The notes under the pieces were generated by a model. That model made no database searches and had not been told where the DNA came from. It saw nothing but the letters and a program-made list of their open reading frames with translations. The position numbers were made by a program, and so were the translations under genes. Below are positions 35,896-47,906 of a stretch of 51,418 nucleotides of DNA, piece by piece. Within the stretch, counting starts at the first letter, position 1; the number at the start of each line of letters is the position of its first letter. The stretch covers positions 124,837 through 176,254 of the forward strand of contig JAFSGG010000042.1 of the NCBI GenBank assembly GCA_017434775.1, given 5' to 3'. The DNA is from Clostridia bacterium (GTDB taxonomy: Bacteria; Bacillota; Clostridia; Christensenellales; Aristaeellaceae).

Positions 35896-35941
35896 TAAAA
35901 AGTAATAGGCGCACTTAACGGGTCGATTTGTTAAGTGCGCC
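35896..35941 (-). terminator. Riboswitch-controlled terminator (expression platform)
   Basis: On the minus strand GGCGCACTTAAC (35941-35930) and GTTAAGTGCGCC (35919-35908) form a perfect 12-bp stem followed by TATTACTTTTT. Its 5' strand overlaps the last bases of the aptamer motif CTGGGC, so aptamer and terminator compete. This fits an ON switch. Confidence 0.85.
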
Positions 35942-36033
35942 CAGACGGTCGGCTTTTAAGTCAGTCAGTGTTGATCCCGGCCCGTTGCTCCCCTGTGGTC
36001 ATTCCACATTACTTCCGTCAGTCGCAATGAACC
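35939..36033 (-). promoter_or_regulatory. ZTP (pfl) riboswitch aptamer in the purine operon leader
   Basis: On the minus strand the layout fits the ZTP riboswitch. P1 is GGTTCATTGC with GCAACGGGCC (one mismatch). P2 is GTGG-AATGA-CCAC, followed by AGGGGAGC. The conserved 3' element is GCCGACCGTCTGGGC, and the GACGG/CCGTC pairing forms the pseudoknot. This RNA class binds ZMP/ZTP, which accumulates when 10-formyl-THF is short, and turns on purine and folate genes. The operon below contains glyA, fhs and both formyltransferases, which agrees. Confidence 0.9.
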
Positions 36034-36052
36034 TGTTCAATTTTCGTTTTGA

Positions 36053-38566: not shown

Positions 38567-38595
38567 TTGACATCGGTAAAAGACAGGCATATAAT
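38567..38595 (+). promoter_or_regulatory. Consensus promoter of the aromatic amino acid operon
   Basis: TTGACA (38567-38572) and TATAAT (38590-38595) match consensus perfectly with a 17-base spacer. The leader peptide start codon lies 32 bases downstream. Confidence 0.93.
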
Positions 38596-38627
38596 AGGCA
38601 CGAATTCAAAAGATTGGAGTTCATGAA

Positions 38628-38684
38628 ATGCGTTCTAATTATGCGGCTTACAGCTTTTACTTTTACTTTATTTACGATTTGTGA
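38628..38684 (+). CDS. Phe/Tyr-rich leader peptide of the aromatic operon
   Basis: An 18-codon reading frame encodes MRSNYAAYSFYFYFIYDL, with five Tyr and three Phe, clustered as YSFYFYFIY. GGAG (38616-38619) lies 8 bases before the ATG. The stop at 38682-38684 is four bases before the 5' arm of an antiterminator. This is the classical arrangement for ribosome-mediated attenuation: scarce charged tRNA-Tyr or tRNA-Phe would stall the ribosome in the peptide. It is too short to show as a normal gene, and the peptide itself probably has no function. Confidence 0.9.
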   Translation: MRSNYAAYSFYFYFIYDL

Positions 38685-38688
38685 ATAA

Positions 38689-38757
38689 AGTTGTTTTGCT
38701 GCATCGCCAAATACAGAATCGTATTTCTTCCCGAAATGCTTCGCAGTAAAACAACTG
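38689..38757 (+). promoter_or_regulatory. Antiterminator of the aromatic attenuator
   Basis: AGTTGTTTTGCTGC (38689-38702) can pair with GCAGTAAAACAACT (38744-38757) at 13 of 14 positions (the other a G-T pair). This pairing uses the right part of the terminator's 5' arm, its loop and the start of its 3' arm, so antiterminator and terminator exclude each other. A ribosome finishing the leader at 38684 would cover the 5' arm; one stalled earlier would leave it free. A small hairpin AATAC/GTATT lies between. Confidence 0.85.
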
Positions 38758-38768
38758 CGAAGCTTTTT
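38738..38768 (+). terminator. Attenuator terminator of the aromatic operon
   Basis: GCTTCGCAGT (38738-38747) and ACTGCGAAGC (38754-38763) form a perfect 10-bp stem with a 6-base loop, followed by TTTTTG. It lies before the first structural gene. Confidence 0.93.
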
Positions 38769-38804
38769 GTTTACCAAATTCATTGATACAGGAGGATACA
38801 GGCC

Positions 38805-39821
38805 ATGATCATCTTGCTCAAACAGAACGCGAATCCCAAACAGGTGGATAACCTGAAAAACTGGCTGACAGACAGCGGATATTCCCTCCACGAATCCCAG
38901 GGCTCTCATCATTCCATCATCGGGCTGATCGGCGATACATCCCGTCTGGATATTGATCTGATCAGTTCTCTGGATGTGGTGGAGGCTGTGCGCCGCATTC
39001 AGGAGCCTTATAAGAGCGCCAACCGCAAATTCCATGAAGATGATACCGTCATTTCCGTGGGCGATGCCAAAATTGGCGGCGGGCATTTCATGATGATTGC
39101 CGGCCCCTGCTCCGTGGAAACGGAAGAACAGATCACCTGCGTTGCCAAAGCCGTCAAAAAGAGCGGTGCCAATATGCTTCGCGGCGGTGCTTTCAAACCC
39201 CGCACTTCCCCCTATGCTTTCCAGGGTCTGCACGGCAAGGGAATCGATCTTCTTCTGAAAGCAAAGAAACAAAGCGGCCTGCCCATCATTACCGAAATTA
39301 TGGACATCAATCATCTTCCCCTTTTCGAAAATGTGGACGTGATTCAGGTCGGCGCCCGGAATATGCAGAACTTTGAACTGCTGAAGGAACTGGGCCAGAC
39401 CAGGAAGCCCATCCTCCTCAAGCGCGGCCTGGCAAATACCATCGAGGAATTGCTCATGAGCGCCGAATACATCATGGCCGGCGGCAATGAAAACATCATT
39501 CTTTGCGAGCGCGGTATCCGTACCTTTGAAACCGCTACCCGCAACACCATGGATCTTTCTGCCGTGCCGGTTCTGCACAAGCTGTCCCACCTGCCGGTGG
39601 TGGTTGACCCCAGCCACGGTACCGGTATTCGGGATCTGGTAAAACCCATGGCGCTTGCAGCCGCTGCCGCCGGTGCCGACGGGCTGATTGTGGAAGTGCA
39701 CAACGATCCCGTGCATGCCCTGTGCGATGGCAAGCAGTCCCTGACGCCTGAACAATTTGACGATCTTGCCCACGCCATCCGGGCCATTTTGCCCCATTGC
39801 ATCCGGGAGGCGAAGTGGTAA
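38805..39821 (+). CDS. aroF: 3-deoxy-7-phosphoheptulonate synthase (DAHP synthase) with N-terminal regulatory domain
   Basis: The 338-residue protein has an N-terminal ferredoxin-like domain (about 1-70, MIILLKQNANPKQVDNL) as in the Thermotoga-type enzymes, then the catalytic barrel. Barrel blocks are MMIAGPCSVETEEQI, MLRGGAFKPRTSPYAFQG, ITEIMDINHLPLFENV, IQVGARNMQNFELL, PILLKRG and VVVDPSHGTG. It condenses PEP and erythrose-4-phosphate, the first shikimate step. The extra domain often carries Tyr/Phe feedback control in this class. GGAGG precedes the ATG, and its stop overlaps tyrA as TAATG. Confidence 0.95.
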   Translation: MIILLKQNANPKQVDNLKNWLTDSGYSLHESQGSHHSIIGLIGDTSRLDIDLISSLDVVEAVRRIQEPYKSANRKFHEDDTVISVGDAKIGGGHFMMIAGPCSVETEEQITCVAKAVKKSGANMLRGGAFKPRTSPYAFQGLHGKGIDLLLKAKKQSGLPIITEIMDINHLPLFENVDVIQVGARNMQNFELLKELGQTRKPILLKRGLANTIEELLMSAEYIMAGGNENIILCERGIRTFETATRNTMDLSAVPVLHKLSHLPVVVDPSHGTGIRDLVKPMALAAAAAGADGLIVEVHNDPVHALCDGKQSLTPEQFDDLAHAIRAILPHCIREAKW

Positions 39822-40654
39822 TGAATATCGGCATTGTGGGCCTTGGTCTCATCGGCGGTTCCCTGGCCAAGAGCATCAAGGAAAATACCGGTCATACTGT
39901 ATGGGGATTTGATATCAATCCCGCCGTCATTACCAAAGCTTCTCTTTGCGAGGCCATTGACGATCCTCTGATTCCTTCCCGTCTCCCCCTTTGCGATATT
40001 GTGCTGATTGCCCTGTATCCTTCTTTGTGCGTGGATTATATCAAAGAAAATGCGGCTCATTTTTCACCCAGCGCCATTATCGTTGATTGTGCCGGTGTGA
40101 AACGTGCCGTTCAGGGGCCCATCAGTGAAATCGCCGCTCATTATGACTGGCAGTACATCGGCGGTCATCCCATGGCCGGCCGCGAATTTTCCGGTTTCAA
40201 TTATGCCAAAGGCGACCTTTTTGAACGCGCATCCATGATCCTGACGCCGGACGGTGAAATCACGCTGGAAACCCGCGCCTTTATCAAATCCTTTTTTCTG
40301 GAGATCGGCTTTGCTTCTGTTCGCTTTACCACGCCGCAGGAGCATGACAGCATGATCGCCTATACCTCTCAGTTAGCTCATATCGTTTCCGGCGCGTATG
40401 TGAAAAATCCCCTGTCTGATCACCATAAAGGTTTTTCTGCCGGCAGCTTTCAGGATATGACAAGAGTGGCCCGGCTGAATGAAAACATGTGGACGGAACT
40501 GATGATGGACAATGCCGATTTACTGGTTCCATCCATTGATGACCTGATTAACCGTCTCACCCAGTACAGGGATGCGCTTGATTCCAGAAACACAGAAACC
40601 CTTCGCGCTCTTTTGAAAGAAGGCCGCATCATGAAGGAAGCCCTGACCAAATAA
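39821..40654 (+). CDS. tyrA: Prephenate dehydrogenase
   Basis: The 277-residue protein has the Rossmann motif MNIGIVGLGLIGGSLA, then ALYPSLCVDYI, the active-site HPMAGREFSGF, TPQEHDSMIAYTSQLAHI and SAGSFQDMTRVA. It oxidises prephenate to 4-hydroxyphenylpyruvate for tyrosine. No ACT domain is present, so feedback may rest on AroF and attenuation. ATG 39821 shares its A with the aroF stop; GGGAGG lies upstream. The longer in-frame TTG start would lie inside aroF. Confidence 0.93.
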   Translation: MNIGIVGLGLIGGSLAKSIKENTGHTVWGFDINPAVITKASLCEAIDDPLIPSRLPLCDIVLIALYPSLCVDYIKENAAHFSPSAIIVDCAGVKRAVQGPISEIAAHYDWQYIGGHPMAGREFSGFNYAKGDLFERASMILTPDGEITLETRAFIKSFFLEIGFASVRFTTPQEHDSMIAYTSQLAHIVSGAYVKNPLSDHHKGFSAGSFQDMTRVARLNENMWTELMMDNADLLVPSIDDLINRLTQYRDALDSRNTETLRALLKEGRIMKEALTK

Positions 40655-40670
40655 CAAAGAAGGTGCATTT

Positions 40671-41732
40671 GTGTATACCGTTCACCTGAAAACATCCACG
40701 CCCTATGATATTCTGATCGGCCCCGGTTTAATTGCACAATCCGGTAATCTGATTGGCAAAGTGTTTTCGCCCTGCAAAGCAGCTGTTATTACAGACAGCA
40801 ATGTTCATCCCCTGTATGCTCCTACGGTGATGCACAGCCTGTCAAACGCCGGTTTTCAGCCCGTGGAATATGTTTTCCCGGCCGGTGAACAGAGCAAAAC
40901 CCTTTCCACACTTTCCGATATACTGGAATTCCTGGCCGAACATCAGCTGACCCGCAGCGATATTGTTGTGGCGCTCGGCGGCGGTGTAACGGGTGATATG
41001 GCCGGTTTTGCAGCGGCAGTATATGCACGCGGCATTTCCTTTGTCCAGATTCCCACCACACTTCTGGCAGCCGTGGATTCCTCCGTCGGCGGAAAAACAG
41101 CGGTGGATCTGAAAGCCGGTAAAAATCTGGCCGGTGCCTTCCATCAGCCCAGCCTTGTGCTGACGGATACGGATGTGATAAAAGCCCTTTCCGATCAATT
41201 GCTGTCGGAAGGCGCCGGTGAAGTGATCAAATACGGCGTGCTCCGAGATCCGGAACTTTTCTCCCTTATGTGTGAAAAGGACTGGAAAGAACACCTGGCT
41301 GAAATCATTCTCCGCTGCGTTGAAATCAAAAAAGACGTGGTTTCCTGTGATGAATATGATAATGGGATTCGCAAACTTCTGAACCTTGGCCACACGTTCG
41401 GACACGCCATTGAAAAATGTTCTGATTTTACCGTTCCCCATGGGTTTGGCGTCGCCATCGGCATGGCCATCGCCTCCGGTGCTGCAGGAAAGAAAGATGT
41501 TTGCAACCGAATTATTCAGGCAAACACCAATTGCGGTCTTCCCTCCTCTTTTGATTGTGAACCTTCCATTCTGGCCGCTGCCGCTTTAACGGATAAGAAG
41601 CGTTCCGGTGAAACCATCGATCTGATTTTCCCGGAAAAAATCGGCAGCTGCTACATTAAAAAAACGCCTGTTGATCAGCTGCCATTCCTTTTTGAAACCG
41701 GTCTCAATACCATCAAGGAGATACTGGCATGA
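40671..41732 (+). CDS. aroB: 3-dehydroquinate synthase
   Basis: The 353-residue NAD- and metal-dependent enzyme has FPAGEQSKTLSTL, ALGGGVTGDMAGFAAAVYARG, IPTTLLAAVDSSVGGKTAVD, AGEVIKYG and the metal histidines in LNLGHTFGHAIE and PHGFGVAIGM. It converts DAHP to 3-dehydroquinate. It uses a GTG start with AAGGTG about 8 bases upstream. Its end overlaps aroA by four bases (ATGA). Confidence 0.96.
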   Translation: MYTVHLKTSTPYDILIGPGLIAQSGNLIGKVFSPCKAAVITDSNVHPLYAPTVMHSLSNAGFQPVEYVFPAGEQSKTLSTLSDILEFLAEHQLTRSDIVVALGGGVTGDMAGFAAAVYARGISFVQIPTTLLAAVDSSVGGKTAVDLKAGKNLAGAFHQPSLVLTDTDVIKALSDQLLSEGAGEVIKYGVLRDPELFSLMCEKDWKEHLAEIILRCVEIKKDVVSCDEYDNGIRKLLNLGHTFGHAIEKCSDFTVPHGFGVAIGMAIASGAAGKKDVCNRIIQANTNCGLPSSFDCEPSILAAAALTDKKRSGETIDLIFPEKIGSCYIKKTPVDQLPFLFETGLNTIKEILA

Positions 41733-42928
41733 ATCGTTGTATTCAACAAAGCAAATTGCAGGGCACGGTTCTCGTTCCTTCTTCCAAATCTTTTGCACAT
41801 CGCCAATTGATCGCCGCCGCCTTATCGGACAAACCCACTCAAATCATTGTCAATACTTTGTCCGAGGATATTTTTGCCACCATGGATTGTGTCCTGAGTC
41901 TTGGCGCAGACATAACAAAAACAGAAGAAGGGATTCTCTGTATCCAGCCCGCTGCTGCGATGCCAAAAAAAGCACATTTTTCTTGCAAGGAGAGCGGCTC
42001 CACCCTGCGGTTTATGCTGCCGGTTGCAGCAGCGCTTGGTATAGACGCTACATTCACAGGTACCGGCAGGCTGCCGGAGAGACCCAATGCGGTTCTGACA
42101 GAGGCTCTCCGTCAGCACAATGTTCAAGCCGATCGTGATTTTCTCCCTCTGCATCTTTCCGGCAAACTTACCGGCGGCCTTTATGAAATTGCCGGCAATA
42201 TCAGCAGCCAGTATATCACAGGTCTTCTGCTTGCCCTTCCCCTTTGCCAGCAGGATAGCCGCATTCGATTCACCACGCCTGTGGAATCCGCCGATTATAT
42301 TGAAATCACCCTTCAGGTTCTTTCCCAGTTTGGCATCAAGGCGGAAAAGGAAGTGGACGGCTATTCTATTCCCGGAAACCAAGCCTATCGTACACCAGGC
42401 GTTATCATAACCGAAGGTGACTGGTCGTCTGCCGTTTTCTGGCATTGCGCCAATCAAATGGGCAGTCGCATTCAGATAGACGGTTTAAACCCCGCCTCCT
42501 GTCAGGGGGATCGACGGATTGTTGATCAGCTGCTGCATCTTGGCGGCGTGATTGACGTTTCTCAAACGCCGGACAGCCTGCCCGCATTGGCAGTTGCCGC
42601 CTGCATGCATCCCGGCACTACACATTTTGTGGGTGCCGGTCGCCTTCGCATAAAGGAGAGTGACAGGCTTTCTGCCATCACCTTCCTGCTGCGTGAACTG
42701 GGACAAGATGTTACGGAAGAGCCGGATGGGCTGATCGTGCGGGGCGGAACCCCTTTTACAGCCGGTACAGTGGACGGATGCAATGATCACCGCATTGTCA
42801 TGGCCGCTGCCATTGCTGCATGCTTCGCAAAGGAGCCCGTTACCATCCTGGGCACGCAAGCCGTAAACAAAAGTTACCCCCGCTTTTTCGACGATCTGAT
42901 TTCTTTGGGAGGAAAAATCCATGGCTAA
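41729..42928 (+). CDS. aroA: 3-phosphoshikimate 1-carboxyvinyltransferase (EPSP synthase)
   Basis: The 399-residue protein is slightly shorter than the common 425-430. It has VPSSKSFAHRQLIAAAL, CKESGSTLRFMLPVAAA, GTGRLPERP, GNISSQYITGLLLALPL, the active-site RLRIKESDRLSAI and DGCNDHRIVMAAAIA. It makes EPSP from shikimate-3-phosphate and PEP. Glycine-rich and substrate-binding motifs are intact. It overlaps aroB by four bases and aroC by eight, so translation is tightly coupled. Confidence 0.95.
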   Translation: MNRCIQQSKLQGTVLVPSSKSFAHRQLIAAALSDKPTQIIVNTLSEDIFATMDCVLSLGADITKTEEGILCIQPAAAMPKKAHFSCKESGSTLRFMLPVAAALGIDATFTGTGRLPERPNAVLTEALRQHNVQADRDFLPLHLSGKLTGGLYEIAGNISSQYITGLLLALPLCQQDSRIRFTTPVESADYIEITLQVLSQFGIKAEKEVDGYSIPGNQAYRTPGVIITEGDWSSAVFWHCANQMGSRIQIDGLNPASCQGDRRIVDQLLHLGGVIDVSQTPDSLPALAVAACMHPGTTHFVGAGRLRIKESDRLSAITFLLRELGQDVTEEPDGLIVRGGTPFTAGTVDGCNDHRIVMAAAIAACFAKEPVTILGTQAVNKSYPRFFDDLISLGGKIHG

Positions 42929-43988
42929 TCATTTCGGCAATCGCTATCACATCCAGATTTTCGGCCAGTCTCATGCCCCCTCCATCGGAGCTGTGATTGA
43001 AGGTCTTCCCGCGGGTTTTTCGCCGGATTGGGAACGTGTCAGGCAGTTTATGGCACGCCGTGCGCCCGGGCAGGATGCTTTTTCCACCAGCCGGAAGGAA
43101 GCTGATTTGCCGGAAATTCTCTCCGGGCTCGATGAAAAGGGCCGGACCTGCGGTGCGCCGCTTGCTATCCGTATTGTCAACGGTGATCATCATTCCACTG
43201 ATTATGATAAGCTTCGTGATCTGCCAAGGCCCGGTCATGCAGATTTTACTGCCTATACCAAATTCAATGGCTTTCACGATATTCGGGGCGGCGGTCAGTT
43301 TTCCGGCCGTCTGACGGCTCCTCTTTGCTTTGCCGGTGCCCTTGCCCTGCAATTGCTGGAGCAGAAAGGCATTCGTGTTTCCGCCCATATTGCCGCCATC
43401 GCCGGTGTATGCGATAAACCTTTCAATCCCATTTCTCCGGAATTCACCGAACTGAGGGACGATCGATTTACCGTGCTGGATGCCAATAAAGGTTCGGAAA
43501 TGAAACAAAAAATTTCAGAAGCTGCCAAAGCCGGCGATTCTGTCGGCGGTATCATTGAATGCTGCGCCATTGGTCTTCCCCCCGGCCTTGGCGATCCCAT
43601 GTTTGACGGCATCGAAAACCGCATTGCCCAGATGCTCTTTGCCATTCCTGCTGTGCGCGGTGTAGAATTCGGTGCAGGCTTTGCCGCATCTGCGATGACC
43701 GGCAGCGCTCATAACGATCCTTTTGTCATTGACAATAATACCGTCAAAACGTCCACCAATCATCACGGCGGCGTACTGGGCGGCATCACCACCGGAATGC
43801 CCCTGATTGTGCGCATGGCTGTGAAGCCTACCCCTTCTATTTCCAGAAAGCAAAAAACCATTTCACTCAATCAAATGTGCGAAGCTGACCTTTCCATTAC
43901 AGGCCGTCACGATCCCTGCATCGTTCCCCGCGCCGTCCCTGTAATGGAAGCGGCAATCGCCTGTGTCCTGTATGATCTGCTTGCATAA
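42921..43988 (+). CDS. aroC: Chorismate synthase
   Basis: The 355-residue FMN-dependent enzyme has [67 protein letters not shown] and the C-terminal [16 protein letters not shown]. It makes chorismate from EPSP. Start and stop are normal; GGAGG of its ribosome site lies within the aroA end. A 15-base gap precedes pheA. Confidence 0.96.
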
Positions 43989-44003
43989 AAAAGGAGAAGT
44001 AAT

Positions 44004-45143
44004 ATGAATCTGAATGATATCCGTGAAAAAATTGACACCATTGATGATCAGCTTGTACAACTGTTGACCGAACGGATGAATACCGTAGCCCAGGTGGCTC
44101 AGGCCAAGAAGGAAACAGGAAAAGCCATCCGCGATCACGCCAGGGAACGTGACATCATCAACCGTGTTACAGAGCGGGCAGGCGATGAACTGGCCCCCTA
44201 TATGAAGAATATGTTCAAAACCATGTTCAATCTCAGCTGCAATTATCAGGCGCAGAAAATGGGCTATACATCCGAACTGGGCGAACAGCTGAAGGAACAG
44301 CTTGCCAATCCGCCGGCACAAAAGCTGCCCAACCGGGCCATTGTTGCCTGCCAGGGCACGGAAGGCGCCTATGCCCAGCAGGCCTGTGAAAAAATGTTCG
44401 AATACCCCAGCATTCTCTATTTCAGCAGTTTCAATGATGTATTCAATGCTGTGGAAAGAGGCATGTGCACTTATGGCATCCTGCCTTTGGAAAATAGTAC
44501 GGCCGGTTCCGTCACCCAGGTATACGACCTGATGGAGCAGCACCATTTCCACATCGTCGGCGCCTGCAGGCTGCGCATTGATCACTGCCTGCTGCGTAAA
44601 AAAGGTGCGCAGGGTGCCGTGAAGAAGATTGTCTCTCACGAGCAGGCCCTCCGTCAATGCAGCAATTATCTGGAAACGCTGAAAGATGCCCAAATTGAGC
44701 CCATGGACAATACGGCTGTGGCTGCTGAATATGTTGCCAACAGCACGGATGACAGTGTGGCCGTCATCGCTTCCGCTTCCTGTGCAGATATCTATAATTT
44801 GCAGATTGAGCAGGACAACATCAGCAATGTTCAAAACAATTTCACACGCTTCATCTGCATTGCCCGGAACATGCAATGCTATCCCAATGCCGGGAAGGTA
44901 TCCATCATGTTCAATCTTCCCCACGCTCCCGGCGCACTCAATGATATCATTTCCCGCCTCTCTCTGGCCGGGGTCAACCTGACCAAACTGGAAAGCCGCC
45001 CCATCCCCGGCCGTGAATTTGAATTCCGTTTCTTCTTCGATTTCGAAGCGGATATTCACGATCCGGCGCTTGTGGATCTGATCTGCGAATTGCAAAACAG
45101 AACCGAGCATTTTGTTTTCCTGGGTGCTTACGCTGAACACTGA
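44004..45143 (+). CDS. pheA: Bifunctional chorismate mutase / prephenate dehydratase
   Basis: The 379-residue protein has three parts. They are an AroQ-class chorismate mutase (1-90, LNDIREKIDTIDDQLVQLL), a prephenate dehydratase (about 108-290, CQGTEGAYAQQAC, YGILPLENSTAGSV) and a C-terminal ACT domain (about 298-375, IMFNLPHAPGALNDII with ESRPIPGREFEF) that usually binds phenylalanine. Within the dehydratase part, NNFTRFICIARN carries the TRF motif. It takes chorismate to phenylpyruvate. With TyrA it explains why the leader peptide tests both Tyr and Phe. Confidence 0.95.
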   Translation: MNLNDIREKIDTIDDQLVQLLTERMNTVAQVAQAKKETGKAIRDHARERDIINRVTERAGDELAPYMKNMFKTMFNLSCNYQAQKMGYTSELGEQLKEQLANPPAQKLPNRAIVACQGTEGAYAQQACEKMFEYPSILYFSSFNDVFNAVERGMCTYGILPLENSTAGSVTQVYDLMEQHHFHIVGACRLRIDHCLLRKKGAQGAVKKIVSHEQALRQCSNYLETLKDAQIEPMDNTAVAAEYVANSTDDSVAVIASASCADIYNLQIEQDNISNVQNNFTRFICIARNMQCYPNAGKVSIMFNLPHAPGALNDIISRLSLAGVNLTKLESRPIPGREFEFRFFFDFEADIHDPALVDLICELQNRTEHFVFLGAYAEH

Positions 45144-45157
45144 TAGGAGTGGTCTTC

Positions 45158-46399
45158 ATGGAATACGGCCTGATTGGCGAAAAGCTGATCCACAGCTATT
45201 CGCCGCAGATTCATGCCCAGCTTGGTCCTTATGAATACAAGCTTTTTCCCATGCCGCCGGAAAAACTGCATGATTTCATGCACAAAAAGCTTTTCAAAGG
45301 TATCAATGTAACCATTCCGTACAAAAAAGCTGTTATCCCCTACTGTGATCATCTGTCACCCGAAGCGGCTGAGATACAGTCTGTCAATACCATTGTGAAA
45401 AATTCCGACGGTACCCTGACCGGGCACAACACCGACATCTTCGGCTTTATGACCATGCTGGAAGCAGCCGGCATTGAGCCAAAGGATAAAAAAGCCGTTA
45501 TCCTTGGCAGCGGTGGCACGAGCCTGACAGCGCAGATTGCGCTGAAAAGAATGCGGGCCAGAGAGATTGTTGTCATTTCCAGAAATGGTCCTGATGATTA
45601 TCAGTCACTGTACGAAAAACATGCTGATGCGCAATTGCTTGTCAATACCACCCCGGTGGGTATGTATCCCCGGAACGGAATATCTCCGGTTGACCTGAAT
45701 CTTCTGCCGAATGTGGAAAGCGTGGCGGATGTAATTTACAATCCTGAAAAAACCTCCTTGATCCTCCAGGCAATGGAAAAAGGTCTGAAAACCGTCTCCG
45801 GCCTTCACATGCTGGTGGCACAGGCAAGGAAAGCCGCCGAACTTTTCACCGGCACAGCCATCGATGTCAAAAAAGATCTTCAGATTGTTCACAAAATCAA
45901 AGAACAGATGCTGAATCTTGTGCTCATCGGCATGCCGGGCTGCGGTAAATCCACCATCGGAAAAATGGTAGCCCAGGCTATGAACCGTCCCTTGATCGAT
46001 ACTGATCAGGAAATCGAAAAACTGGCCGGCAAAACCATTCCGGAGATTTTCGCACAGGATGGCGAAGAAGCTTTTCGGGCAATGGAAGAAAGGGTCGTTC
46101 TGCAAGCGTGCTCACAACAGGGCGCAGTGATCACAACCGGCGGCGGCGCCGTCCTGCGCAAACCGAACCGTTTGGCTATGGCATCTAACAGCCGGGTGTG
46201 CATGCTTTGCCGTCCGCTGGATCAATTATCCAAAGAAGGGCGGCCCCTTTCCAAAGATGCCGAAGCCCTTGAATCGCTCTGGCAGGAACGGAAGGATCTG
46301 TATTTTCGTACAGCAGATTTCCAGATACACAATACAACCGATCCGCAGCAAACAGCTTGCCGGACACTGGAGGGATTTTATGAAGCTGTTGGTCATTAA
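45158..46399 (+). CDS. aroE-aroK: Shikimate dehydrogenase-shikimate kinase fusion (AroE-AroK)
   Basis: The 413-residue protein joins two consecutive activities of the pathway. Residues 1-245 are shikimate dehydrogenase, with the catalytic Lys56 in VTIPYKKAV, Asp93 in GHNTDIFGF, ILGSGGTSLTA and NTTPVGMYP. Residues 252-413 are shikimate kinase, with Walker A GMPGCGKSTIGK (258-269), IDTDQEIEKLAG, FRAMEERVV and TTGGGAVLRKP. The start is ATG 45158, after TAGGAG at spacing 9, rather than the upstream GTG 45149. It overlaps aroQ by 20 bases. Confidence 0.93.
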   Translation: MEYGLIGEKLIHSYSPQIHAQLGPYEYKLFPMPPEKLHDFMHKKLFKGINVTIPYKKAVIPYCDHLSPEAAEIQSVNTIVKNSDGTLTGHNTDIFGFMTMLEAAGIEPKDKKAVILGSGGTSLTAQIALKRMRAREIVVISRNGPDDYQSLYEKHADAQLLVNTTPVGMYPRNGISPVDLNLLPNVESVADVIYNPEKTSLILQAMEKGLKTVSGLHMLVAQARKAAELFTGTAIDVKKDLQIVHKIKEQMLNLVLIGMPGCGKSTIGKMVAQAMNRPLIDTDQEIEKLAGKTIPEIFAQDGEEAFRAMEERVVLQACSQQGAVITTGGGAVLRKPNRLAMASNSRVCMLCRPLDQLSKEGRPLSKDAEALESLWQERKDLYFRTADFQIHNTTDPQQTACRTLEGFYEAVGH

Positions 46400-46805
46400 C
46401 GGCCCCAACCTGAATATGCTGGGCATCCGGGAAAAAGAGCTTTACGGTGCAAAGGATTATGCGGCACTGTGCGCTTTCATTCAGCAAACGGCAGAAGAAT
46501 TACAAGCGGAAGTGGATATCTATCAGTCCAATCATGAAGGGGATCTGGTGGATTGCATCCAGAATGCATACGGAAAAGTGGACGGAATCGTCATTAATCC
46601 TGCCGCCTATACTCACACAAGCGTAGCCATTTTGGACGCGTTGAAAGCTGTTTCCATCCCGGCATGTGAGGTACACCTCACCGATGTCAATGCCCGGGAA
46701 GATTTCAGAAAAATCTCCTATGTGCGCCTGGCTTGTGAAAAGACGTTTTCCGGCTATGGATTTGAAGGATATGCCATGGCCATGCGCCATTTATGCAGCA
46801 AATGA
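46380..46805 (+). CDS. aroQ: 3-dehydroquinate dehydratase, type II
   Basis: The 141-residue protein has the type II dehydroquinase blocks LLVINGPNLNMLGIREKELYG, YQSNHEGDLVDCIQNA, NPAAYTHTSVAILDAL and VHLTDVNAREDFR. It is a dodecameric class of enzyme that dehydrates 3-dehydroquinate to dehydroshikimate. Its ATG lies inside the aroE-aroK end after GGAGGG. It is the last gene of the operon and completes all seven steps to chorismate. A bidirectional terminator follows. Confidence 0.96.
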   Translation: MKLLVINGPNLNMLGIREKELYGAKDYAALCAFIQQTAEELQAEVDIYQSNHEGDLVDCIQNAYGKVDGIVINPAAYTHTSVAILDALKAVSIPACEVHLTDVNAREDFRKISYVRLACEKTFSGYGFEGYAMAMRHLCSK

Positions 46806-46810
46806 AAAGC

Positions 46811-46843
46811 GCCTCATGCTTCACTGCATGAGGCCTTTCTTTT
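46811..46843. terminator. Bidirectional terminator between aroQ and the CapA-family gene
   Basis: GCCTCATGC (46811-46819) and GCATGAGGC (46826-46834) form a perfect 9-bp stem followed by CTTTCTTTTA on the plus strand and GCTTTTC on the minus strand. It separates convergent genes. Confidence 0.85.
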
Positions 46844-47906
46844 ATTCAATAAACGTGCCGTTTTCCAGTTTCACAATCCCGGTATCCAGAAAGCTTTCCG
46901 GCAGATTATCAAAGTGTTTATATACATTCTTTTTGAATGTCAATTCCTTAAACACAGCTTTTCTTTCTTTTTCGTCCGTCAGTTCGTAGGGACGAAAATC
47001 CGGGCTCAGCTGCGTTTCGCAAGGAATCACCTGCAGCTGCGTCACCTCCACCTTTCCATCCGCATTCCGCTGGAATGTTACCTGGAAAATGCCTGTAGAC
47101 GGGTCCACATGGGACATGGTGCCGAAAGTGAAATTGCCGGTACTATACATAATAGGCTTGCCCTGATAAAAATGAATGGGCTGAATCACATGGGGATGAT
47201 GGCCCCAGATCACATCGGCTCCGGAATCCATGACAGATTTTGCGTACTTATACTGCCAGCTTTCCGGCGTCATATGGGTTTCACGGCCCCAGTGAAGGCT
47301 GACGATTACCACATCGCAGTTTTCCTCTGTCTTCAGTTTTTCAATTCGGGAACCAATACGCTTGAGATCGTTGTCCTGCGGATAGGAAAATCCCACAAAA
47401 CCAAACCGGATTCCCTTTGCCTCCGCAACCGCCAGGTAATCGTATCCGTTATCATTAAACACCCGGTAGGATCCGAAATGCTTGATACCGGCATCCTCCA
47501 GCACCTGCAGGCTTTCCCGATAGCCTTTATCCATAAAATCCATGCTATGGTTATTGATGGTATTCACCACTTCAATGCTGCCAAGGGTCAGTGCCTGCAC
47601 ATTTTCCGGCTTTCCTTTGAGGTAATACGCCTTGTCGGCATGCTTTTTTTCGTTTGTGAACACGACTTCCAGATTGGCAACCGTCAGGTCGTCTCCGGCC
47701 AGATAATCCTTCACCAGGCTGAAAGGCCATTCATAGCCATTCTTTTCCAGGCAAGTATGATAGCTGGAGTCATACTCCATGTATTGGGCAGAATCACCGA
47801 TGCTGCAGTCCCCCACAAAGGAAACAACCACTGCCTCATTTTCGGCAAAAGCCATTGGCTGTATTGCCAGAAGACAAATCACAAAGCAAACCAGAAACTT
47901 TTTCAT
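46842..47906 (-). CDS. CapA-family secreted protein (poly-gamma-glutamate synthesis / metallophosphatase-like)
   Basis: The 354-residue protein starts with a signal peptide (MKKFLVCFVICLLAIQPMAFA, then ENE). The CapA fold follows, with SFVGDCSIGD, ANLEVVFT, NTINNHSMDFMDKG, IVSLHWGRE, IWGHHPHVIQPI and STGNFTFG. These are the metal-site and core motifs of the family, which is related to calcineurin-like phosphatases. Some members take part in poly-gamma-glutamate capsule formation, but no pgsB/C genes are here, so the role is open. ATG 47906 follows AAGGAG at spacing 6; the longer frame lacks a signal-like start. It lies 13 bases after the RluA-family gene. Confidence 0.86.
   Translation of the reverse strand: MKKFLVCFVICLLAIQPMAFAENEAVVVSFVGDCSIGDSAQYMEYDSSYHTCLEKNGYEWPFSLVKDYLAGDDLTVANLEVVFTNEKKHADKAYYLKGKPENVQALTLGSIEVVNTINNHSMDFMDKGYRESLQVLEDAGIKHFGSYRVFNDNGYDYLAVAEAKGIRFGFVGFSYPQDNDLKRIGSRIEKLKTEENCDVVIVSLHWGRETHMTPESWQYKYAKSVMDSGADVIWGHHPHVIQPIHFYQGKPIMYSTGNFTFGTMSHVDPSTGIFQVTFQRNADGKVEVTQLQVIPCETQLSPDFRPYELTDEKERKAVFKELTFKKNVYKHFDNLPESFLDTGIVKLENGTFIE

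What the first reader, a model, noticed from the sequence alone, without database searches (positions are those of the whole stretch)
38567..38768. Complete ribosome-mediated attenuator with a Tyr/Phe leader peptide before a whole shikimate operon
All elements can be read directly: a consensus promoter, the leader MRSNYAAYSFYFYFIYDL with its own GGAG site, a 13/14-base antiterminator pairing starting four bases after the leader stop, and a perfect 10-bp terminator with TTTTT. Tyr and Phe codons are interleaved, so one leader would test both amino acids for an operon that makes both. Such attenuators are best known in Gammaproteobacteria. In Bacillota, T-boxes are the more usual device.
Basis: partly seen in the sequence, partly recalled or inferred. 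Interest (0 to 1): 0.75.

Follow-up and report, generated by a model that had tools for sequence, protein, structure and literature searches.

The report
Tyr/Phe leader-peptide attenuator before aro operon
Upstream of an operon that makes tyrosine and phenylalanine, this bacterium appears to carry a tiny peptide gene full of tyrosine and phenylalanine codons whose translation probably decides whether the operon is transcribed; similar devices sit before the same gene in many other Clostridia.

Summary
The window carries a 12/12 sigma-70 promoter, a GGAG-preceded 18-codon ORF with 5 Tyr and 3 Phe codons, a 14-bp antiterminator pairing and a 10-bp terminator with TTTTT. They precede an eight-gene operon covering all shikimate steps plus tyrA and pheA. 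In close relatives Y/F codons change almost only silently or between Tyr and Phe, and 15 of 23 hairpin pairs show compensatory change. Outside the genus, 22 of 23 checked covariance-model hits lie directly before aroF. T-box matches coexist in this genome, one before pheS. I judge it a new, widespread member of a known kind, the ribosome-mediated attenuators; ten library searches found no description of it. No expression data were available.

The parts
38567..38595 (+). sigma-70 type promoter TTGACA-17-TATAAT (predicted start near 38602)
   Evidence: 12/12 match; both hexamers identical in all six aligned sequences, the window and five relatives
38616..38619 (+). Shine-Dalgarno GGAG of the leader ORF, 8 bases before ATG
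   Evidence: sequence; GGAG kept in the six aligned sequences
38628..38684 (+). leader peptide ORF MRSNYAAYSFYFYFIYDL, 5 Tyr and 3 Phe codons
   Evidence: comparable ORF in 74 of 113 aroF upstream regions; codon-level constraint
38628..38654 (+). early leader codons that can pair with strand 2 and its 3' flank (protector). Predicted: 38651-38654 with 38698-38701 and Ala-codon bases 38645-38647 with 38706-38708; with a ribosome at the last Tyr codon, Ala-codon bases 38643-38647 with 38698-38702
   Evidence: folds (mean P of strand 2 with early codons 0.32 without ribosome, transcript to 38737); set-wide support in 55 leaders
38665..38691 (+). 1:2 hairpin, 11 pairs, 5' arm in the Phe-Ile-Tyr codons, loop and 3' arm holding the stop codon
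   Evidence: -9.7 kcal/mol; compensatory changes across 22 aligned leaders
38689..38702 (+). antiterminator strand 2 (AGTTGTTTTGCTGC)
   Evidence: 14 of 14 pairs with strand 3; strand2:strand3 pairing z<-2 in 43 of 60 leaders
38743..38756 (+). antiterminator strand 3 (GCAGTAAAACAACT), overlaps both arms and the loop of the terminator
38738..38768 (+). intrinsic terminator, 10-bp stem 38738-38763 and TTTTT
   Evidence: compensatory changes
38805..39821 (+). aroF, DAHP synthase, first gene of the controlled operon
   Evidence: NF006421 491.5 bits
39821..40654 (+). tyrA, prephenate dehydrogenase; start inferred
   Evidence: best NCBIfam score below the curated cut-off
40671..41732 (+). aroB
   Evidence: TIGR01357
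41729..42928 (+). aroA
   Evidence: TIGR01356
42921..43988 (+). aroC
   Evidence: NF003793
44004..45143 (+). pheA, chorismate mutase-prephenate dehydratase
   Evidence: NF008865, TIGR01805 (both just below cut-off)
45149..46399 (+). aroE-aroK fusion
   Evidence: shikimate dehydrogenase and shikimate kinase models on the two halves (below cut-off)
46380..46805 (+). aroQ, type II 3-dehydroquinate dehydratase; start inferred
   Evidence: TIGR01088 from residue 43 of the mechanical ORF
46811..46834 (+). terminator at the end of the operon, 5 bases after the aroQ stop

Best explanation
A ribosome-mediated transcription attenuator that senses charged tRNA-Tyr and tRNA-Phe. RNA polymerase starts near 38602 and a ribosome follows on the 18-codon leader. 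When both amino acids are plentiful the ribosome reaches the stop codon and covers the start of strand 2, early leader codons can re-pair with the rest of strand 2 and its flank, strand 3 is left to strand 4, and transcription stops at 38764-38768. When Tyr or Phe is short, the ribosome stalls in the FYFYF run at 38655-38669, which melts the protector and 1:2 pairings and leaves strand 2 free to pair with strand 3; the terminator cannot form and the aroF-tyrA-aroB-aroA-aroC-pheA-aroEK-aroQ operon is transcribed. Shown by sequence and comparison: the ORF, the mutually exclusive pairings, and their conservation. Inferred: translation of the leader, stalling, the direction of regulation, and enough ribosome-polymerase coordination over about 100 bases.
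For: Anatomy verified. 74 of 113 aroF upstream regions have an SD-preceded ORF with at least 6 Tyr/Phe in 10 codons; dinucleotide shuffles (20 per region) give 0.0013 per region (about 0.15 expected), reverse strands 0 of 113, and FY is the best of 190 amino-acid pairs (next AY, 31). All 74 leaders hold both Tyr and Phe, 3 hold Trp; in five Y/F columns of 21 close leaders, pairwise differences are 3.7% at base 1, 24.7% at base 2 and 28.3% at base 3, the codons being TAT, TAC and TTT apart from two exceptions (AGC, GCG) in one column. RNAalifold on 22 leaders gives 1:2 and terminator, with a compensatory change in 15 of 23 pairs. Strand2:strand3 pairing mean z -2.63, z<-2 in 43 of 60, against 2 of 60 for each of two control pairings. 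Ribosome-mask folding of 60 leaders: strand 3 paired to the strand-2 region on average 0.57 with a stall in the run, 0.22 at the stop, 0.35 without ribosome; mean stall exceeds stop by >0.1 in 50 of 60, the reverse in 2. Model R1 finds, outside the genus, hits of which 22 of 23 checked lie directly before aroF.
Against: No transcript, proteome or starvation data. At equilibrium the full-length RNA prefers the terminator at every ribosome position (P 0.98-0.99), so the switch must be kinetic. In the window the last Tyr codon (38673) is predicted not to antiterminate (P 0.00-0.01), and codons 17 and 18 swing between 0.01 and 0.81 with the assumed footprint. Without a ribosome P(2:3) is still 0.49. 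A ribosome held on codons before the run antiterminates as well in the models (window 0.95-0.96; set mean 0.64), so specificity rests on the codons, not on the folds. 39 of 113 regions did not pass the threshold, though some of these show leaders with fewer Y/F or without SD. My detector found no terminator in 14 of 74 leaders, and the pairing tests used only the other 60. B. subtilis transcription is reported to outrun its ribosomes (review PMC7858274, passages), which would weaken such a device if this lineage behaves the same; the operon's own 3' terminator lies 5 bases after the stop, the proxy quoted there (few terminators).
Confidence: 0.9

Rival explanations
1. The leader is sensed as RNA, not through its translation: a protein- or ligand-binding RNA (or an undetected T-box-like element) before a terminator, with the ORF incidental.
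For: Strong conserved structure; the genome uses other RNA switches: 17 T-box matches and a ZTP riboswitch in the window.
Against: Codon-position pattern of nearly only silent or Tyr-Phe changes; SD and start kept; no T-box or amino-acid leader family among the four Rfam matches up to E 10 in this region, all below gathering score; the leader sequence varies outside the pairing strands.
Confidence: 0.05
2. The attenuator works but mainly as a general translation sensor (slow translation of any cause, low initiation, or antibiotics), with Tyr/Phe codons only biasing it.
For: In the folding models a ribosome held on codons before the run antiterminates as well as one in the run (set mean 0.64 versus 0.57; same in the window).
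Against: The amino-acid class is under clear constraint and matches the products of the operon; Trp is nearly absent (3 of 74 leaders).
Confidence: 0.12
3. The short ORF encodes a functional aromatic microprotein, and the terminator simply ends its own transcript with constitutive read-through.
For: Comparable ORFs are preserved across many families.
Against: The 74 peptides range from 18 to 47 residues and vary in sequence apart from Y/F and Ala; the antiterminator that competes with the terminator is conserved.
Confidence: 0.03

Closest known systems
Leader-peptide attenuators of Gammaproteobacteria (E. coli trp, pheA, his, ilv, thr; details recalled, not from a call)
   Same: Leader ORF rich in codons for the operon's products, 1:2, 2:3 and 3:4 pairings, terminator before the first gene
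   Different: Controls the whole shikimate operon from aroF; Tyr and Phe codons together; found in Clostridia; no Rfam leader family matched here
uORFC-13-1 motif before aroF in Acholeplasma (PMC8632094, passages seen)
   Same: uORF with Phe codon(s) and terminator before aroF, proposed attenuation
   Different: 24 representatives in Acholeplasma and environmental sequences, described with at least one Phe codon from a U run; the passage names no Tyr codons. Not aligned with the present family here
His leader attenuators of Bacilli, Peptostreptococcaceae, Lutispora and Erysipelotrichales (PMC2965389, PMC9413887, passages seen)
   Same: Predicted ribosome-type attenuators in Bacillota, in lineages or genes where T-boxes or a repressor are the alternative
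   Different: Histidine codons, his/hisS/hisZ genes
S. aureus ilv-leu attenuator (PMC5794164, passages seen)
   Same: Bacillota, leader peptide, terminator/antiterminator, with mutant and promoter-activity support
   Different: Leu (and Ile) codons, different operon
T-box leaders
   Same: Bacillota devices sensing tRNA charging before amino-acid genes; matches in this genome before pheS, trpB, leuA and others
   Different: Bind tRNA directly without a ribosome (recalled); model not matched here

Membership tests
Ribosome-mediated (leader-peptide) transcription attenuator | Translatable leader ORF with ribosome binding site | tested here: met
   GGAG 8 bases before ATG; kept in the aligned relatives. 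Translation itself not tested
Ribosome-mediated (leader-peptide) transcription attenuator | Codons for the amino acids made by the controlled operon, conserved as codons | tested here: met
   Operon identity; codon-position pattern in 21 close leaders
Ribosome-mediated (leader-peptide) transcription attenuator | Mutually exclusive antiterminator and intrinsic terminator | tested here: met
   14-bp and 10-bp helices sharing 38743-38747 and 38754-38756; 43 of 60 leaders z<-2
Ribosome-mediated (leader-peptide) transcription attenuator | Protector or 1:2 pairing of strand 2 with leader codons | tested here: met
   1:2 hairpin with compensatory changes, though in the window it covers only the first 3 bases of strand 2; early-codon pairing with the strand-2 region mean z -1.33, control -0.11, 55 leaders
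Ribosome-mediated (leader-peptide) transcription attenuator | Read-through depends on leader translation and on charging of tRNA-Tyr/Phe | not testable with these tools
   needs expression data
T-box | Match to the T-box covariance model | tested here: not met
   No RF00230 hit at the site, while the same model gives 17 matches elsewhere in the genome
Rfam amino-acid leader families | Match to a leader covariance model | tested here: not met
   gathering; E up to 10; four matches, none an amino-acid leader
uORFC-13-1 (Acholeplasma aroF) | Shared consensus sequence and structure | not tested
   its alignment was not available; I did not check whether Rfam holds it

The most novel reading that the evidence does not exclude
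A large, undescribed family of dual Tyr/Phe leader-peptide attenuators is a common control of the aromatic pathway in Clostridia, in genomes full of T-boxes. Its leader ORF is coding and structural at once: early codons (often Ala-Ala) help form the protector of antiterminator strand 2. It would require local ribosome-polymerase coordination in a phylum whose model organism is described as uncoupled, and it may have moved with aroF into gut Lentisphaerae and Treponema.
Probability: 0.5. Interest if true: 0.7.

Novelty: new member of a known kind. Interest (0 to 1): 0.52.

Why it matters
It gives an aromatic-pathway control for many uncultured Clostridia and suggests that Phe is handled in one genome by two devices: a T-box match before pheS (89.8 bits, below the gathering score of 93, E 2.7e-20; its specifier codon was not read) and a leader peptide before the biosynthetic operon. 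Because the device needs a ribosome near RNA polymerase, the family is a natural probe of whether transcription and translation are coupled in Clostridia. B. subtilis is described as largely uncoupled (PMC7858274, passages), and this operon's own 3' terminator lies 5 bases after its last stop, the proxy for uncoupling quoted there.

Tried and rejected
T-box: rejected, no model hit at the site. Rfam leaders: rejected, four sub-gathering matches only, the best rli38 with E 0.19. Overlapping ORF from 38623: rejected, wrong frame for the conserved residues, bad SD spacing, broken in L002. Chance Y/F ORF: rejected by shuffles, reverse strand and the amino-acid-pair control. Internal promoters or terminators in the operon: promoter-like sites on both strands 15 against a shuffle mean of 7.9 (sd 2.4), best inside the operon on the + strand 10 of 12 at 43639-43668; terminator-like sites 10 against 10.2; I did not pursue the promoter excess.

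Led nowhere or limited: BLAST placement failed for 14 of the 20 short pieces fetched; these were redone by coordinates. The other 6 (L141, L142, L143, L145, L147, L150) are counted in both calls. One region (L098, 91 nt) was too short and two duplicates were dropped before the count of 113. One weak aroF place (G026) was never fetched. The 60 phylum families were picked by hand, one high-scoring aroF place each, from a capped list, so they are not a random sample. Literature: ten searches listed no paper on a Tyr/Phe leader before aro genes in Clostridia; four of them returned nothing at all, the library lacks most subscription papers, and a comparative survey cited in PMC4833913 (Lopatovskaya 2010) was not read. 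Coupling proxy on the window: five crude terminator-gene pairs other than the attenuator, two of them the same hairpin read on both strands, too few to conclude. R1 genus hits largely include its own training sequences and are not independent.

Full report
What is there. A helix of 14 was met in 0 of 5000 mononucleotide shuffles. The RNA folds 6.1 standard deviations below its shuffles. Two elements were missed: an 11-bp 1:2 hairpin at 38665-38691 that holds the stop codon, and complementarity between early leader codons and strand 2 with its flank.

What it precedes. The leading NCBIfam models name the eight genes aroF, tyrA, aroB, aroA, aroC, pheA, aroE-aroK and aroQ (tyrA, pheA and the aroE-aroK halves score below the curated cut-offs). 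Gaps run from -20 to +16 bases and a terminator follows aroQ. The operon covers every step from DAHP to the keto acids of Phe and Tyr, and none of the eight is a trp gene. A T-box above the gathering score precedes trpB elsewhere in the genome. That fits a leader with Tyr and Phe but no Trp codons.

Conservation of the peptide. Of 60 relatives 47 have an aroF match; 50 of the 51 places were fetched, 30 as L001-L030 and 20. With 80 loci of genome contigs, 113 distinct upstream regions of at least 200 bases were scored. 74 have an SD-preceded ORF with at least 6 Tyr/Phe in 10 codons, against 0.0013 per shuffled region and 0 of 113 reverse strands. By set: 21 of 30 for L001-L030, 50 of 77 for genome contigs, 9 of 20 for L141-L160 (6 of these 20 are also among the 113). 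The genome contigs set was drawn by similarity to this AroF, so it is not a random sample. The counts are probably lower bounds: L010, L007, L020, L009 and L016 show a shorter run, and L050 and L106 a run without a clear SD (read by eye). In a hand-picked set of one aroF per family across the phylum, 10 of 60 pass. Rfam scans at gathering score: no T-box in 20 close loci; one T-box before aroF, in L197, among 40 further loci (27 of the 60 families and 13 order-level loci).

Selection on codons. All 74 leaders contain both Tyr and Phe, and 3 contain Trp. In five aligned Y/F columns of 21 close leaders (19 from genus genomes, plus L032 and L033), base 1 differs in 3.7% of comparisons, base 2 in 24.7% and base 3 in 28.3%. 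Apart from one AGC and one GCG the codons are TAT, TAC and TTT, so nearly all base-2 changes swap Tyr and Phe and nearly all base-3 changes are silent or go with such a swap. This is the pattern expected if the ribosome reads the codons.

Selection on RNA. RNAalifold on 22 leaders (17 genus genomes, one other family member, four genome-contig loci) gives 1:2 and terminator, with a double change in at least one sequence in 15 of 23 pairs; some pairs are broken in several sequences, at most 7 of 22. On 60 leaders with a detected terminator, strand 2 to strand 3 pairing has mean z -2.63 (43 of 60 below -2), Y/F run to strand 2 mean z -1.6 (22 of 60), early codons to strand 2 mean z -1.3 (17 of 60), and the two control pairings 0.16 and 0.02 (2 of 60 each). 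With stricter codon-level controls on 55 leaders, early codons to the strand-2 region has mean z -1.33 (codon order) and -1.07 (synonymous codons), against -0.11 for the control. So part of the conserved peptide seems to serve RNA pairing; an Ala-Ala or Ala-x-Ala near the start of the run is seen in 45 of 74. In the window itself the predicted early-codon pairing is modest: strand 2 with early codons P 0.32 without a ribosome, and in the predicted best folds Ala-codon bases pair with strand 2 only when a ribosome sits at the last Tyr codon. Searches show a second layout in which the ORF runs on through strand 2.

Genome-wide specificity. A covariance model of those 22 leaders (R1) gave exactly one hit in 24 of 29 genus genomes. 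By coordinates, 23 of the 24 lie before aroF; the other, G014, has no aroF match. The five misses are three genomes without an aroF match (G003, G017, G025), one with only a weak one (G026), and G018, whose aroF has a leader with fewer Y/F (L026). Much of this set trained the model. In wider samples, 23 of 200 order genomes and 5 of 299 phylum genomes match at E up to 0.001, each including our own (stricter filters). Of 23 fetched non-own hits, 22 lie directly before aroF, each with an ORF of 6 to 12 Y/F codons (SD not required); L259 does not. None of the 22 shows a training peptide, but four are loci already counted above (L255, L262, L263, L265 are the places of L024, L179, L178, L177). Six weaker places were not fetched.

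How it most likely works. Masking folds of the window: with the ribosome at codons 11 to 14 the 1:2 hairpin is partly to wholly lost (P 0.48 to 0.00 with the shorter footprint) and strand 2:3 forms with P 0.92-0.96; at the stop codon P is 0.00-0.03; without a ribosome P(1:2) is 0.97 and P(2:3) 0.49. Against a simple reading: at codons 1 to 10 P(2:3) is also 0.95-0.96, at codon 15 0.16-0.20, at the last Tyr codon 0.00-0.01, and at codons 17 and 18 between 0.01 and 0.81 depending on the footprint. At the last Tyr codon strand 2 is taken by early leader codons, including Ala codons. Across 60 leaders the mean is 0.57 for stalls in the run, 0.22 at the stop and 0.35 without ribosome; stall beats stop by more than 0.1 in 50 and loses in 2 (Wilcoxon 9e-11), but early codons give 0.64. 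The sequences are related, so this P value overstates independence. These are equilibrium folds of partial transcripts with an assumed footprint; real attenuation is kinetic.

Known or new. Leader-peptide attenuators are a known kind and are in print for Bacillota with His (PMC2965389, PMC9413887) and Leu (PMC5794164), and PMC8632094 proposes a Phe uORF before aroF in Acholeplasma (passages seen). I found nothing on this Tyr/Phe family in ten library searches, which do not cover most subscription journals. I therefore call it a new member of a known kind, notable for breadth, dual specificity and coexistence with 17 T-box matches (6 above the gathering score). One of these, below that score (89.8 against 93 bits, E 2.7e-20), stands before pheS.

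Why it may matter. A review reports that B. subtilis transcription outruns translation and that terminators close to stop codons mark this state (PMC7858274, passages). In the window the stop-to-stem distances of five other crude terminator-gene pairs are 15, 8, 5, 31 and 17 bases, the 15 and 17 being one hairpin read on both strands. If that mark holds here, this attenuator must keep ribosome and polymerase together only over the leader, perhaps by pausing at the 1:2 hairpin; this is inference.

One search was added to test the early-codon pairing in the window; the wording on Ala codons was narrowed.

Noticed in passing
35932-36035, - strand: ZMP/ZTP riboswitch (RF01750, 55.9 bits), also present in L031 at 121-222 -.
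   Followed up: no
G000, 17 places listed: T-box matches (6 above gathering score). First long ORF downstream, by NCBIfam: valS, leuA, trpB, metG, pheS, thrS, alaS, serS, hisS, proS (76-aa piece), an O-acetylhomoserine sulfhydrylase, cysE (weak T-box match), a PLP enzyme (L164) and adenylation-enzyme-like genes (L161, L167, L173); L174 has no ORF in reach. T-boxes before the adenylation-like genes look unusual.
   Followed up: partly
L050, L106, L080 (Lentisphaerae-group MAGs), L099 (Treponema MAG): Y/F-rich leaders before aroF in non-Bacillota MAGs, L050 and L106 without a clear SD (read by eye); transfer with aroF or misbinned contigs.
   Followed up: no
L197 (G251) upstream of aroF: A T-box stands before aroF where other families have the leader peptide, a case of sensor exchange.
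   Followed up: no
46811-46834: Operon-end terminator only 5 bases after the aroQ stop; scores on both strands.
   Followed up: partly
L026 (G018) upstream of aroF: Diverged leader MRSGRIGNRYWFYFTV that includes Trp, same genus.
   Followed up: no
45149-46399: Shikimate dehydrogenase and shikimate kinase fused in one ORF.
   Followed up: no
38780-47000: Promoter-like sites exceed shuffles (15 against 7.9, both strands).
   Followed up: no
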